Source: an uncultured Myxococcales bacterium (GTDB lineage: Bacteria; Myxococcota_A; UBA9042). From it: DNA of 32,725 nucleotides. The first letter of the stretch is position 1, and the number at the start of each line of letters is the position of its first letter. The translations under genes were made by a program, and so were the position numbers. The stretch spans positions 1-32,725 of the forward strand of contig CAIPXZ010000503.1 of NCBI GenBank assembly GCA_903869075.1, read 5' to 3'. Of this stretch, positions 14,258-24,435 are shown piece after piece. Below the pieces are notes generated by a model. The model was not told where the DNA came from. It was given only the letters and a program-made list of their open reading frames with translations, and did no database searches.

Positions 14258-14608
14258 ATGATGGCAACCACTGAAATTCGCTATCGACTGCACCCGCAAG
14301 CGGCGCATCGCAAGGTCGCGGGCGAGGTGTTCGTTGTCACCGGCGATCGCGCGTTCCATCGCATGCAAAACGCGACGGCAGTGGACCTTTTTGACGCGCT
14401 GGCGTGTGCCGACGCCGGCGCAACTGCGGAGGAACTGACCGCCCTGTTGCTGCACACCTACGACGTACCGGAGCACGAAGCCCGGGCGGACGTCGCGGCG
14501 TTTCTCGAGACGCTGCTCGCCCGCCAGCTCGCCGTTCCGGCACCCGCATCCGGCTCCCCCGGAAATCCCCCGGCTCCTGCCGCTGGCCAACCCAAGGTGA
14601 CCTCATGA
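14258..14608 (+). CDS. PqqD-like RiPP recognition element (RRE) protein
   Basis: RYRLHPQAAHRKVAGEVFVVTGDRAFHRMQNATAVDLFDALACADAGATAEELTALLLHTYDVPEHEARADVAAFLETLLARQLA matches the PqqD fold pattern (hydrophobic strands followed by DVxxFLxxLxxxxL). SD-like AGGACGAG upstream. Confidence 0.8.
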   Translation: MMATTEIRYRLHPQAAHRKVAGEVFVVTGDRAFHRMQNATAVDLFDALACADAGATAEELTALLLHTYDVPEHEARADVAAFLETLLARQLAVPAPASGSPGNPPAPAAGQPKVTS

Positions 14609-17600
14609 CCCCCATCACCCCACGTACCGGCTCCCTGGTTGTCCCGTCCGTTCGCCTCCTCAGCTGGCTCGCCGCCGTGTGCGCCGCCATCGTGCTGCCC
14701 GCCTGCGCGCCGGACACGCCCGCGCCGCACCCGTATTGCATTTGGGAAGACGGCTGCCCCAGCGAAGATGCGCAAAATGACGGGCAAATCGGCGACGCTT
14801 CTGACGCCACCACGACCGTCGCGCGCACGCTCGTCTTTTCCCTGGACACGCAAAAAGGTCCGGTTCTTGTCGGCGACGTGACGACAGCGAAGATCGGCCA
14901 GGCGTCCGACAACGATCCGGCGCTGGCTGGCGTGCAGGTGGACGTCTCCGTGACCACCGGCAACGTGCCCGACGGCGCCGCGCTGGAAGTGTACATCAAC
15001 AGCGTCAAGGTCGGCGCGCCGGCGCAGATCCTCAACAATGCCGGGCGGATCAACGGCATCACGGTGCCGTGCACGTCGGACACCGCACCGCTGACGATTT
15101 CCGTGCGCGCCGTTGTCAACGCCGCGACGGGCGATGCCGCGGTGGGCAAGGACAAGAGCCTTGTGGTGACCTGCGGCAAGGCCTGCAAAGCCACTGTGGA
15201 CGCGCTGCCGCAGAGCTGCCTGACCCAGGATCAGGACCCAAATACGCCAGGCTTTCAGCAGACTTTCGTCGTGCACAGCGACCAGTCAGATTGCACGGAC
15301 GCGTACCTGACCGTCGTGGGTCCGCCGGGGACGCCGAGCGAGACGACGCACGTGCAGCTGAACGGCTCGACCTCGGTGCCGGTGATGGCGACGTTGGCGG
15401 TCGATGACACCGGACTGCTGGGCGTCACCGCGACGGTGATCGGCGTCGTCGAGGACACGAACAACCCGGATCGCGGCTCAATCGTCTCGGATCCGGTGAA
15501 GGCGACGATCACGACGGAATCGCCGTCAATCCTCGTGACGCAGCCGACGTCGGGCCAGCTCAAGCTGAGCGACGACACCGATCCGACCACGCCGGGCATC
15601 CAGGTCACGCTGGTCGGCACCGCCGGTGGGCTGACGCCGGCCGACAAGAATGCGATCGAGCTGTACGTCGACGGCACGCTGACGACGACGACGACGCAGC
15701 AGGCCAACGGCCAGTTCGTGATCCCGCTGAGCTTTACAACCACCGGCACGCACGCTTTGCTGATCAAGGCGACGAACGCCTGCGGTCTGAGCGGGCAAAA
15801 GTCCAAGTCTTTGGCGGTGTTTGTCGATCAGGCCGGGCTCGCGATCGTCGCGCCCAGCCAGGACGCCGTGCTGCACGTCGTCGATGATCTGGACAAGAGC
15901 ACGCCGGACGTGCTGGACCTGATGCTGTCCGTGGCGGTGACGACGGAGACCGCCGGTACGGACCTGGAAGTGTTCTGCAAGCCCAAGATTGCCAAGGATT
16001 ATCCGACCACTCCGTCCGCGACGGTGCTGTATACCGACGCGACGGTGCTGACCATCGACATCCCGGTGTCGCTGGCGATCGCCGAGCTGGGCCAGGAAAT
16101 CGAGTGCCGCGTGCAAGACAACGCGCCGAACCAGACGGTGAGCGCGCCGGTGAACTTTGTCGCCGCCTTGCCGCCGCCGTGCCTGCACGTGATCACGCCC
16201 GCCGCGGCGGTGACGGTGACGACGGCGAGCCTGGAATTCCTGCTCGAGACTTCCGGCTTGGACGGCCAGCACGTGCAGGGCTACCTGATTACGCCAGGTG
16301 GGGTGCCGCTGGATGCGGTTGACTTGGGCACGCCGGTGACCAACCACTTGGCTGGCACTTTCGCATTGCAAGACGCAGGGGTGCAGGTGCCGGACGGTGT
16401 GTACACGCTGTCCTTCCAGGCCGCCGACAAGTGGGGCAACCTCGCGGGGCAGTCGCTGTGCTCGGACGTGACGCGGACGGTGACAATCGACACGACGCCG
16501 CCGACGCTGGTGATTACGCTGCCGGTCAAGGCGACGCTGACGACGCTGGACGATCCGGACAGCGATCCGGCCAAGCCCGGCTATCAGATTGACGTGGAAG
16601 TGACGATTACCGATGCCCATTCGGTCTGCCTGGCGGTGGACGGCGTGCAGCTGGCGTGCAACACGAACATCCCGGAAGGCACGGGCGTCATCGTGTTCCA
16701 CGACGTGACGCTGCAGCCGGGCGTGACCCAGCTGGCGGTGTCCGGCGTAGACATCAACGGCAACAAGGCGGCGCCGGCACCGACGCTGGTGACGCTGCTT
16801 TCCGACGTGCCGGCCGTCAAATTCGTGGCGCCGACGGGCTCCGTGACGGTGGCCAAGGACGTGCTGACACTGACGGTGGCCGTGACCGACCCGAATTCCG
16901 GCCAGCCGGTGACGGGCGCGGCGCTGGACGTGCTGCAAAATGGCGCGTCAGTGCCGGTGACGGCGACGGAGACGGCGCCGGGCGTGTACACCTTCCAGCT
17001 GAGCGGCTTCTCCGCGGGCGTAACGACCGTGCAGGTAGGCGCGTACGCGCCGGCGGCGCCCGACAAGAAAGGATATTCCGGCGAGATTACAGTCACCTAC
17101 AAAGCGACGCAGCCGACCGCTACGATCGCCTCGCCGACCGATGGGCAAGTGCTCAACGCCGCCAACCTGACCTGCGCGCTCGGCCAAATCGACTGCGTAC
17201 TGCCGGTCGCTGCGACCTTCACAAATCTGGAAGACGGCAGCCCGGTGGAGTTGACCGTCACCTGCGGCGCCAGCGTGACAAAGTACACAAGCAGCGTGCA
17301 GGCCGGCGCCGTGAAGCTCTTGAATGTCAAGCTGTTGGATCAGAATACCTGCGACCTCGCCGTCGCTGTGACCGACGCTGCCGGCCAGACTGCGGTGTCG
17401 CCGGTGGTCCACATTACGGTCGACCGCGTCGCGCCGACGTTTGGTCTGATGAAGAGTCCCAAGGAGGCAAACGGCGCGATGACGCTGCTCGGCGCGTCGG
17501 ACCTGGACGCCGATCCGACCAACGGCATGCAAATCGATTGGTCGATGCAAGTCGCCGGCCTGCCCGCCGGCGCAACGATCAGCTGCAACGTCACCGACGA

Positions 17601-22863: not shown

Positions 22864-24031
22864 GGACACAGCGCCGTACCACGCGTTCGTCGCCTCGCTG
22901 CGCGCCGCGTGGATCAAGGAAAATCGCCCGCTGGAGGCGCACCTCGACATCACGTACCGGTGCGATCTGGACTGCCAGCACTGCTACCTGGACAACCGCA
23001 CCAACTGGCCGGAGATGACGACGGCAGAATGGCTGAATGTTTTGGAGCAGTTGCAAGCCGCCGGCGTCATGTTCCTGGTGTGGAGCGGCGGCGACGTGAT
23101 CATGCGCAGCGACTTTGGCACGCTGCTCGACCGCGCTGCGGCGCTGGGCCTGATGAGCCGCGTCAAGACCCACGGCGGCCAACTGACCGCCGAGTGGGCG
23201 CAGCGCTTCGCCCGCGACAAGGTCGGCCGCGTCGACATCAGCGTCTACAGCCTGCGACCGGAGATCCACGACCGGTTGACTCGCCGGCCGGGGTCGCTGG
23301 TCAACACCCTGCGCGGCATCGCCGCGGCGCGCGAGGCCGGCATACCGGTCAAGATTTCCTGCTACGTGCAGCCGAGCACGATCAGCGAAATCGGCGAAAT
23401 TTGTCGCTATTTTGAGGACATGGGCTGCAAGATCGTCTTCAACACCAACACCGTGCTGGACCACTCGGCCTCGGAGACGCTGGCGTACCTGCAGCTGACG
23501 GACGACGACCTCGTGCGCGCGCGGGTGGAGATTTTGCGCGCCCAGCCCAGCGGTTTGCCCAAACGATTGAGTGAGCTGCCTTCGCACGCGCCGTGCGCGG
23601 CCGGGCGGACCGCGTTGTACATCAGCCCGGACGGCGAGCTGTGGCCGTGCGTCAATTTCCCGATGGCGCTTGGCAACTTGCGCGAAAAGCCGCTGCTGGC
23701 GATCTGGCGTGAGTCCACAGCGCGCGCGAGCCTCGTGGCCTGGGACAACGACCAGCGCACCGGCTGCCACAGCTGCGCCGGCAGCGGCATGTGCTTCTAC
23801 TGCCCCGGCGATGCCTTCAAAAAGACAGGCGATTTTCGCCTGGCGCCGGCGACCTTCCACGCCGCCACCCGCGCCAAGATGCGCGCGTGGGAAATCGTCC
23901 AAGGCGACACCTTCAGCGCCGACGACTGGCAGAGCGTGCCGGCGGAGGAAGCAAAGCCATTGACCCGCAAGAACTTTCATTTTCCGATTCACCGCGCCAA
24001 GCGCGGCAGCGGCAAGCGCGTCGGCCCGTGA
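22850..24031 (+). CDS. Radical SAM/SPASM domain peptide maturase-like protein
   Basis: ATG at 22850 with GGAG six nt upstream. HLDITYRCDLDCQHCYLDNR (CxxxCxxC at 22961-22984), FLVWSGGDVIMR. SPASM-type cysteines CAAGRTALYISPDGELWPC...CHSCAGSGMCFYCPGDA. Confidence 0.9.
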   Translation: MPQPEDTAPYHAFVASLRAAWIKENRPLEAHLDITYRCDLDCQHCYLDNRTNWPEMTTAEWLNVLEQLQAAGVMFLVWSGGDVIMRSDFGTLLDRAAALGLMSRVKTHGGQLTAEWAQRFARDKVGRVDISVYSLRPEIHDRLTRRPGSLVNTLRGIAAAREAGIPVKISCYVQPSTISEIGEICRYFEDMGCKIVFNTNTVLDHSASETLAYLQLTDDDLVRARVEILRAQPSGLPKRLSELPSHAPCAAGRTALYISPDGELWPCVNFPMALGNLREKPLLAIWRESTARASLVAWDNDQRTGCHSCAGSGMCFYCPGDAFKKTGDFRLAPATFHAATRAKMRAWEIVQGDTFSADDWQSVPAEEAKPLTRKNFHFPIHRAKRGSGKRVGP

Positions 24032-24435
24032 CGACGCTTGTGTGGCACGACGTGCGCGGCCGCTCGATGTGGCCGCTGGAAGCGCCGCTGCAAGCGGGTG
24101 TCGCAGTCGTGGCGACGAACGATCTGCAACCCGGCGATATCGTGGCGTTTATCGCCGGCCATGCGCCGGTGCTGTGGGTGCATCGCGTCGTGCGGGTGGA
24201 GTTTGACGCGGTCATTACCCGTGGCGATACCAACGGCTATGACGACCCGCCGGTGCCGTTTTCGGCGATCCTCGGGCGCGTCGCGGCGGTGCGCTGGGGG
24301 CCGTGGACGCTGCCACTGGCGGATCGCGGGCCGTTGGCGCGGTGGCAGCGGCGCGCAGGTCAGGCGTGGGCGCAGTTGGCGCCGGGACTGCGGCGGCGGT
24401 TCGCGCGGCAAAAAACCCGCGGTTCGGGCACATGA
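24028..24435 (+). CDS. Minimal S26 (SipW/ER-signalase-like) or S24-type peptidase
   Basis: GTG at 24028 overlaps the radical SAM stop (GTGA). GRSMWPL (Ser motif), LWVHRVVRV (His motif), AVITRGDTNGYDDPPVPF (GDxN..D..PV motif). No obvious N-terminal transmembrane segment. Confidence 0.7.
   Translation: MTTLVWHDVRGRSMWPLEAPLQAGVAVVATNDLQPGDIVAFIAGHAPVLWVHRVVRVEFDAVITRGDTNGYDDPPVPFSAILGRVAAVRWGPWTLPLADRGPLARWQRRAGQAWAQLAPGLRRRFARQKTRGSGT

What the first reader, a model, noticed from the sequence alone, without database searches (positions are those of the whole stretch)
14258..24435. Candidate new RiPP-like system: PqqD / giant surface lipoprotein / Cys precursor / HprK-like kinase / radical SAM-SPASM / SipW-like peptidase
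Seen in sequence: six same-strand genes with stop-start overlaps at three junctions (ATGA at 14605; GTGA at 22021 and 24028) and a 14-nt overlap at 22850. The only notable gap is about 64 nt before the precursor. Established: PqqD-like RRE plus radical SAM/SPASM proteins mature RiPPs (PQQ, sactipeptides, ranthipeptides, GeoRSP-type systems). Inference: this combination, with an HprK-like protein, a minimal S26 peptidase and a ~2.4-kDa-residue-scale (~2386-aa) surface lipoprotein inside the operon, could make a modified peptide that is processed or displayed at the cell surface. I see no lasso cyclase (asparagine synthetase-like), B2 protease or ABC exporter in the window, so a classical lasso cluster is not supported.
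Basis: partly seen in the sequence, partly recalled or inferred. Interest (0 to 1): 0.82.

Follow-up and report, generated by a model that had tools for sequence, protein, structure and literature searches.

The report
Myxobacterial modified-peptide operon with surface lipoprotein
A bacterium of the myxobacterial phylum carries a six-gene operon that most likely makes a small cysteine-containing, enzyme-modified peptide together with a giant integrin-like surface protein; the same operon recurs across the phylum and I found no description of it.

Summary
In detail: six same-strand genes (PqqD-type RRE, 2386-aa lipoprotein, 64-aa peptide, HprK-like kinase, radical SAM/SPASM enzyme, S26 peptidase) lie at the stated coordinates with the stated overlaps. 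I compared 79 distinct loci from Myxococcota. Of 42 with enough flank, 39 have a neighbouring FG-GAP lipoprotein, and all 42 have a short [Y/W/F]xxP peptide once three were recovered by hand. In 57 of 57 measurable loci the big protein lies 0-209 nt upstream of the peptide gene, across two gene orders. In the host's family, 21 of 22 genomes carry the enzyme. Peptide leaders are conserved and almost Cys-free; cores vary and all 50 scored contain Cys. The kinase model matches the PEPCK/HprK fold and keeps the residue spacing of a tested lasso-peptide kinase. The radical SAM enzyme is closest to SkfB and PqqE; in the host's family its last SPASM Cys has become His (22/22). The peptidase keeps Ser/His/Asp but has no clear anchor. 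The lipoprotein head folds like an integrin-alpha propeller. No NCBIfam or Pfam model covers the peptide, and no open-access paper I found describes the combination. Chemistry and the lipoprotein's role are inferred.

The parts
14258..14608 (+). PqqD-family RiPP recognition element (116 aa)
   Evidence: PF05402 E 4.8e-9; homologues at the same place in 36 of 42 well-flanked loci by automatic calling (this window's own copy was missed by that gene caller)
14605..21765 (+). Giant lipoprotein (2386 aa): SPII lipobox LPAC (Cys34), Ig-like stalk, C-terminal FG-GAP propeller head
   Evidence: Big_13/FG-GAP; lipobox Cys 20/20 and 34 further Cys at 95-100% in 20 family members; head model pLDDT 86, PDB matches are integrin alpha chains, best E 6e-8
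20125..21762 (+). Modelled C-terminal part of the lipoprotein containing the integrin-alpha-like FG-GAP head
21830..22024 (+). Precursor peptide, 64 aa: leader ...RKPYERPEIETLGGTLAVLLAS, core GCLDINCTICLPGNPGNGNDLT (boundary inferred)
   Evidence: conserved leader and variable Cys core in 50 aligned precursors; coding score and position conserved
22021..22863 (+). HprK/PEPCK-fold peptide kinase (280 aa, GTG start)
   Evidence: AF2 pLDDT 93; PDB PEPCK E 1e-7 and HPr kinase 1knx E 3e-5; His131, Gly151, Lys152, Thr154 63/63
22850..24031 (+). Radical SAM/SPASM maturase (393 aa); CxxxCxxC 38-45; SPASM Cys 249, 267, 306, 309, 315, 318, and His337 in place of the last Cys
   Evidence: closest solved structures SkfB E 2.5e-41, PqqE E 2.4e-37; ligand conservation
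24028..24435 (+). Soluble S26 (signal-peptidase-like) peptidase, 135 aa, Ser13/His52/Asp67
   Evidence: TIGR02228 E 2e-7; Ser 35/35, His 45/45, Asp 42/45; no window of 19 residues above KD 1.3

Best explanation
The operon makes a ribosomally synthesised, radical-SAM-modified and probably phosphorylated peptide, plus a dedicated cell-surface partner. Proposed steps: (1) the PqqD-type RRE holds the precursor by its YxxP leader; (2) the SkfB/PqqE-like radical SAM/SPASM enzyme crosslinks the Cys-containing core, most likely as a thioether; (3) the HprK/PEPCK-fold kinase phosphorylates a Ser/Thr of the precursor; (4) the soluble S26 Ser/His peptidase cuts off the leader near the conserved L-x-[S/C]; (5) the product works with the giant lipid-anchored Ig-stalk protein, whose integrin-alpha-like propeller head would bind or display it at the surface. 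Shown: gene content, recurrence, leader/core anatomy, catalytic motifs, folds. Inferred: every chemical step, the cut site, the export route, and the lipoprotein's role.
For: 79 distinct loci across Myxococcota. FG-GAP lipoprotein 0-209 nt upstream of the peptide gene in 57/57 measured loci, in two gene orders (PqqD-LP-peptide-kinase-rSAM-S26 and kinase-PqqD-rSAM-LP-peptide). Some big proteins without sequence match to the window's still have the FG-GAP architecture. Leaders 2 Cys in total, cores 105; every core has 1-4 Cys, aromatics only 4% of core residues. rSAM closest to SkfB (thioether-forming, my knowledge) and PqqE. Kinase keeps H-x14-G-x2-G-x-G-K-[S/T], the spacing of the tested peptide kinase BsfK, whose action is accelerated by the RRE protein (PMC10368454). 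Last residue Ser/Thr in 36/64 precursors against 12% elsewhere in the core; known lasso kinases act on C-terminal Ser (PMC10368454). S26 triad conserved, no clear anchor.
Against: No exporter in the clusters (one search found no ABC-like gene among unassigned neighbours). Three well-flanked loci (L060, L219, L220) and the pair L061/L064 have the peptide and enzymes but no recognised FG-GAP lipoprotein beside them, so it is not strictly required. S26 recognised in only 28 of 42. C-terminal Ser/Thr is rare in the window's own family (7/22). Asp near Cys, expected for Cys-Asp thioethers, is only mildly enriched. Contigs are drafts and gene calls are mine.
Confidence: 0.72

Rival explanations
1. 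The product is a secreted sactipeptide/ranthipeptide-like antibacterial, and the lipoprotein is only an immunity factor or a separately useful neighbour.
For: Variable Cys-rich cores and an SkfB-like enzyme.
Against: No exporter in the cluster; single copy per genome, near-universal in the family and vertically inherited, unlike patchy bacteriocins; lipoprotein-peptide adjacency fixed across two gene orders.
Confidence: 0.2
2. The peptide is the source of a small redox cofactor, as PqqA is for PQQ or MftA for mycofactocin.
For: PqqD/PqqE-like partners, one copy per genome, vertical inheritance.
Against: Core sequence and length vary widely with no invariant residue pair to build a cofactor from; no cofactor-using oxidoreductase in the locus.
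Confidence: 0.06
3. The enzymes act on the giant lipoprotein, as sulfatase-maturating rSAM enzymes act on their target, and the small peptide is an adaptor.
For: Lipoprotein and enzymes share the operon almost always.
Against: The short ORF has textbook RiPP leader/core anatomy with an RRE leader motif; loci L060, L061, L064 keep peptide and enzymes without the lipoprotein; the lipoprotein's 34 near-invariant Cys are even in number, as expected for disulfides.
Confidence: 0.05
4. A lasso-peptide cluster with its cyclase elsewhere in the genome.
For: YxxPx[LIV] leader, PqqD and HprK-like kinase as in the Bradymonas bsf cluster.
Against: No Asn_synthase hit on this contig; none of the assigned or Pfam-scanned cluster genes is a cyclase or B2 protease; cores start with no conserved Gly1 and the ring acceptor is not conserved; an rSAM/SPASM enzyme is present instead.
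Confidence: 0.02

Closest known systems
Bradymonas sediminis bsf lasso-peptide cluster (PMC10368454)
   Same: YxxPxL leader, stand-alone PqqD-type RRE, HprK-like kinase that phosphorylates the precursor with help from the RRE; same kinase motif spacing
   Different: bsf has lasso cyclase, B2 protease and ABC transporter; here a radical SAM/SPASM enzyme, an S26 peptidase and a giant lipoprotein instead
SynChlorMet cassette (NCBIfam TIGR04249 ScmC, TIGR04250 ScmE, TIGR04251 ScmF)
   Same: HprK-like ScmC relative (E 4.5e-7) beside rSAM/SPASM enzymes and, from memory, a PqqD homologue
   Different: all scores far below the curated cut-offs (29.5 of 125; 80.6 of 400); one rSAM enzyme, not two; S26 peptidase and lipoprotein added
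HPr-rel-A system (TIGR04352 kinase, TIGR04353 PqqD)
   Same: pairing of an HprK-related kinase with a PqqD-family protein
   Different: scores 20.4 of 200 and 15.8 of 35; here with rSAM/SPASM and a Cys precursor
Sactipeptide/ranthipeptide maturases (SkfB 6efn, AlbA, PapB)
   Same: rSAM/SPASM fold, Cys-containing precursor; SkfB is the closest solved structure (E 2.5e-41)
   Different: RRE is a separate gene; kinase, soluble S26 peptidase and FG-GAP lipoprotein added; last SPASM Cys is His in this family
PQQ biosynthesis (PqqA/D/E)
   Same: PqqD-type RRE and PqqE-like enzyme on a short precursor
   Different: variable Cys core; no PqqB/C; PqqE model score 91 of 381
Integrin alpha chain propeller
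   Same: FG-GAP beta-propeller head fold (22 best PDB matches are integrin alpha chains)
   Different: lipid-anchored at the N-terminus, head at the far C-terminus, about 10-16% identity: fold resemblance only

Membership tests
RiPP, radical-SAM-modified (general) | short precursor with conserved leader and variable core next to modifying enzymes | tested here: met
   50 aligned precursors; in all 42 well-flanked loci after 3 manual recoveries
RiPP, radical-SAM-modified (general) | RRE that binds the leader | tested here: inconclusive
   PF05402 domain and YxxP motif present; binding not testable here
RiPP, radical-SAM-modified (general) | core is actually modified | not testable with these tools
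   needs mass spectrometry
Sactipeptide / ranthipeptide | rSAM/SPASM enzyme plus Cys-bearing core | tested here: met
Sactipeptide / ranthipeptide | Cys thioether to an alpha or non-alpha carbon | not testable with these tools
   chemistry unknown; few aromatics make C-C or ether crosslinks less likely
Sactipeptide / ranthipeptide | match to a curated maturase model (TIGR04403, NF045574, NF012164) | tested here: not met
   59.1 of 300, 85.3 of 625, 64.8 of 850 bits
Lasso peptide | asparagine-synthetase-like cyclase in the cluster | tested here: not met
   PF00733 hits all on other contigs
Lasso peptide | B2 transglutaminase-like protease | tested here: not met
   no such Pfam hit among the window proteins scanned
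Lasso peptide | YxxP-type leader and PqqD-type RRE | tested here: met
SynChlorMet cassette | ScmC and ScmE above curated cut-offs | tested here: not met
   29.5 of 125; 80.6 of 400
SynChlorMet cassette | two rSAM enzymes in the cassette | tested here: not met
   one in the operon; the window's only other rSAM is lipoyl synthase on the other strand
HPr-rel-A system | kinase and PqqD above curated cut-offs | tested here: not met
   20.4 of 200; 15.8 of 35
GeoRSP system | rSAM and PqqD above curated cut-offs | tested here: not met
   77.9 of 400; 13.4 of 100
HprK/PEPCK-superfamily peptide kinase | fold and H...G..G.GK[ST] motif | tested here: met
   motif compared
SipW-like / S26 signal peptidase | Ser-His(-Asp) residues | tested here: met
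SipW-like / S26 signal peptidase | membrane anchor | tested here: not met
   maximum KD19 1.3 in the window's protein; only 6 of 45 relatives exceed 1.6

The most novel reading that the evidence does not exclude
A phylum-wide myxobacterial recognition system: each lineage makes its own variable, radical-SAM-crosslinked and phosphorylated peptide that is bound by, or mounted on, its cognate integrin-like stalk protein on the outer surface and serves as a self-identity or cell-contact signal. It would be a RiPP that works as a surface ligand rather than a secreted antibiotic.
Probability: 0.2. Interest if true: 0.9.

Novelty: new variant of a known kind. Interest (0 to 1): 0.68.

Why it matters
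It points to a widespread and apparently undescribed class of modified peptides in Myxococcota, with precursors absent from NCBIfam and Pfam and therefore invisible to annotation based on those models. It joins three things I did not find joined in the papers searched: radical SAM chemistry, peptide phosphorylation by an HprK-like kinase, and a giant surface lipoprotein with an integrin-like head. Its near-universal, vertical presence in one family suggests a core function rather than an occasional antibiotic. The Cys-to-His change in the last SPASM ligand position, fixed in 22 of 22 family members, gives a ready case for studying auxiliary cluster ligation.

Tried and rejected
Chance adjacency: rejected by synteny. 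Lasso cluster: no cyclase. Precursor in NCBIfam/Pfam: none of 24 members hit even at E<1. Viral carriage: no relative in viral contigs. Lipobox in the peptide core (LASGC looked like one): rejected, not kept in relatives (e.g. LSSAVVC) and no signal peptide. Hypervariable lipoprotein head tracking the peptide: head windows are somewhat less conserved (0.32-0.5) but not hypervariable, so co-diversification is not shown. Free Cys in the lipoprotein for coupling the peptide: 34 near-invariant Cys besides the lipid Cys, an even number, suggests disulfides. Spread to other phyla: genome-contig hits beyond Myxococcota were rSAM genes whose loci held none of the partner genes; searching other phyla by kinase profile was not possible. 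Literature: no paper in the library on the combination; two reviews do not mention S26 or kinases in this setting. Subscription papers and the 2022 radical SAM RiPP atlas could not be read, so 'undescribed' is provisional.
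Full report
OBSERVATION. Pfam and NCBIfam give PqqD (E 5e-9), Radical_SAM plus SPASM, FG-GAP/Big domains, a weak HprK-like kinase and a weak S26 peptidase. The 64-aa peptide matches nothing. The window is a contig of a 6.27-Mb draft genome of a lineage whose named relatives are 'uncultured Myxococcales' MAGs, many of them apparently aquatic.

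RECURRENCE. The radical SAM enzyme has 45-71% relatives in all 13 sampled members of the host family besides the host itself, and a profile finds it in 21 of 22 family genomes (the missing one is 67% complete), 44 of 55 in the class and 106 of 386 in the phylum. I fetched the neighbourhoods, called genes with a script trained on each locus, and removed duplicates: 79 distinct loci. Of 42 with at least 8.5 kb upstream and 1.5 kb downstream, automatic counts are PqqD 36, FG-GAP lipoprotein 39, peptide 39, kinase 39, S26 28. The caller missed this window's own PqqD. The three missing peptides are visible by eye: L087, L088 and L219. Two of the three missing kinases were called (L081, L085). Distances among cluster genes correlate with those of the radical SAM enzyme as strongly (0.75-0.81) as for the neighbours YbgF, LysM and RseP (0.75-0.78), i.e. 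vertical inheritance. The genome has one copy each of the kinase and of the lipoprotein head (one weak partial match aside).

TWO GENE ORDERS. In the host family and class the order is PqqD, lipoprotein, peptide, kinase, rSAM, S26. In other families (relatives named Sandaracinaceae and Polyangiales) it is kinase, PqqD, rSAM, lipoprotein, peptide. In both, the big protein sits 0-209 nt upstream of the peptide gene: 57 of 57 measurable loci. Several of these big proteins show no sequence match to the window's but scan as FG-GAP plus Ig-like or fn3. This is the main reason to treat the lipoprotein as part of the system. Exceptions exist: L060, L219, L220, and the pair L061/L064.

THE PEPTIDE. In 50 aligned precursors the leader reads R-x-P-[Y/W/F]-x-x-P-x-[V/I/F/L] followed about ten residues later by L-x-[S/C]. 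Leaders hold 2 Cys in total, cores 105; each core has 1 to 4 Cys. The F/Y/W content of cores is 4% and 20 cores have no F/W/Y/H, which argues against aromatic C-C or ether crosslinks as the common chemistry. The last residue is Ser or Thr in 36 of 64 against 12% elsewhere in the core, mostly outside the host family; the p-value there ignores shared ancestry.

THE ENZYMES. The radical SAM Cys (38, 42, 45) and SPASM Cys 249, 267 and 306 are in 78 of 78, Cys 309 and 315 in 77, Cys 318 in 74. The last SPASM position is Cys in 54 of 56 outside the family and His337 in 22 of 22 inside it, at the same spacing. Closest solved structures are SkfB and PqqE. The kinase model (pLDDT 93) matches PEPCK and HPr kinase and keeps His131-Gly146-Gly149(consensus)-Gly151-Lys152-Ser153, the same spacing as H148-G163-G166-G168-K169-S170 of BsfK, a tested peptide kinase whose action is accelerated by its RRE partner (PMC10368454). 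The S26 peptidase keeps Ser13, His52 and Asp67 without a clear anchor.

THE LIPOPROTEIN. Lipobox Cys 20 of 20; 34 other Cys at 95-100% in the host family. The modelled C-terminal 546 residues (pLDDT 86) match integrin alpha propellers (best E 6e-8). A lipid anchor, an Ig-like stalk and a propeller at the tip suggest a binding head held away from the cell. What it binds is unknown; the neighbouring peptide is the obvious candidate, but no data here show binding.

PLACE AMONG KNOWN THINGS. It works like a radical SAM RiPP pathway with a lasso-type leader and kinase. It is not a lasso cluster (no cyclase), not SynChlorMet, HPr-rel-A or GeoRSP by curated cut-offs, and cannot be filed as a sactipeptide or ranthipeptide without chemistry. 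I rate it a new variant of a known kind, with a provisional claim that the combination is undescribed, because the searchable papers are open access only.

LIMITS. Draft genomes, home-made gene calls, no transcription data, structures predicted. Steps from modification to surface function are inference.

Noticed in passing
window 22850-24031 (His337 of the rSAM protein): The last Cys ligand position of the SPASM domain is His in 22/22 family members and Cys in 54/56 other Myxococcota relatives.
   Followed up: partly
window 1756-7626: A 1956-aa lipoprotein with 21 scored MopE-type metal-binding motif stretches (PF11617), unrelated to the operon.
   Followed up: no
window 24442-31657: YbgF-LysM-FHA-AAA-DUF1257 gene block that follows the operon in nearly all family genomes; the FHA/AAA/DUF1257 set looks like a conserved unit of unknown role.
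   Followed up: no
window 8707-9741 (- strand): Lipoyl synthase, a second radical SAM protein in the window, not part of the operon.
   Followed up: no
L071 (CAMDBH010000004.1): A MAG contig titled Klebsiella pneumoniae carries this operon with family synteny; the title is almost certainly wrong.
   Followed up: no
L207:10503-11798 (-): In the second gene order a TPR/cyclic-nucleotide-binding protein precedes the kinase; similar ~420-445-aa genes sit there in L206, L209, L211, L213-L215, L218.
   Followed up: partly
L210, L212, L216: Two adjacent genes score as the kinase in each of these loci, perhaps for two phosphorylation sites.
   Followed up: no
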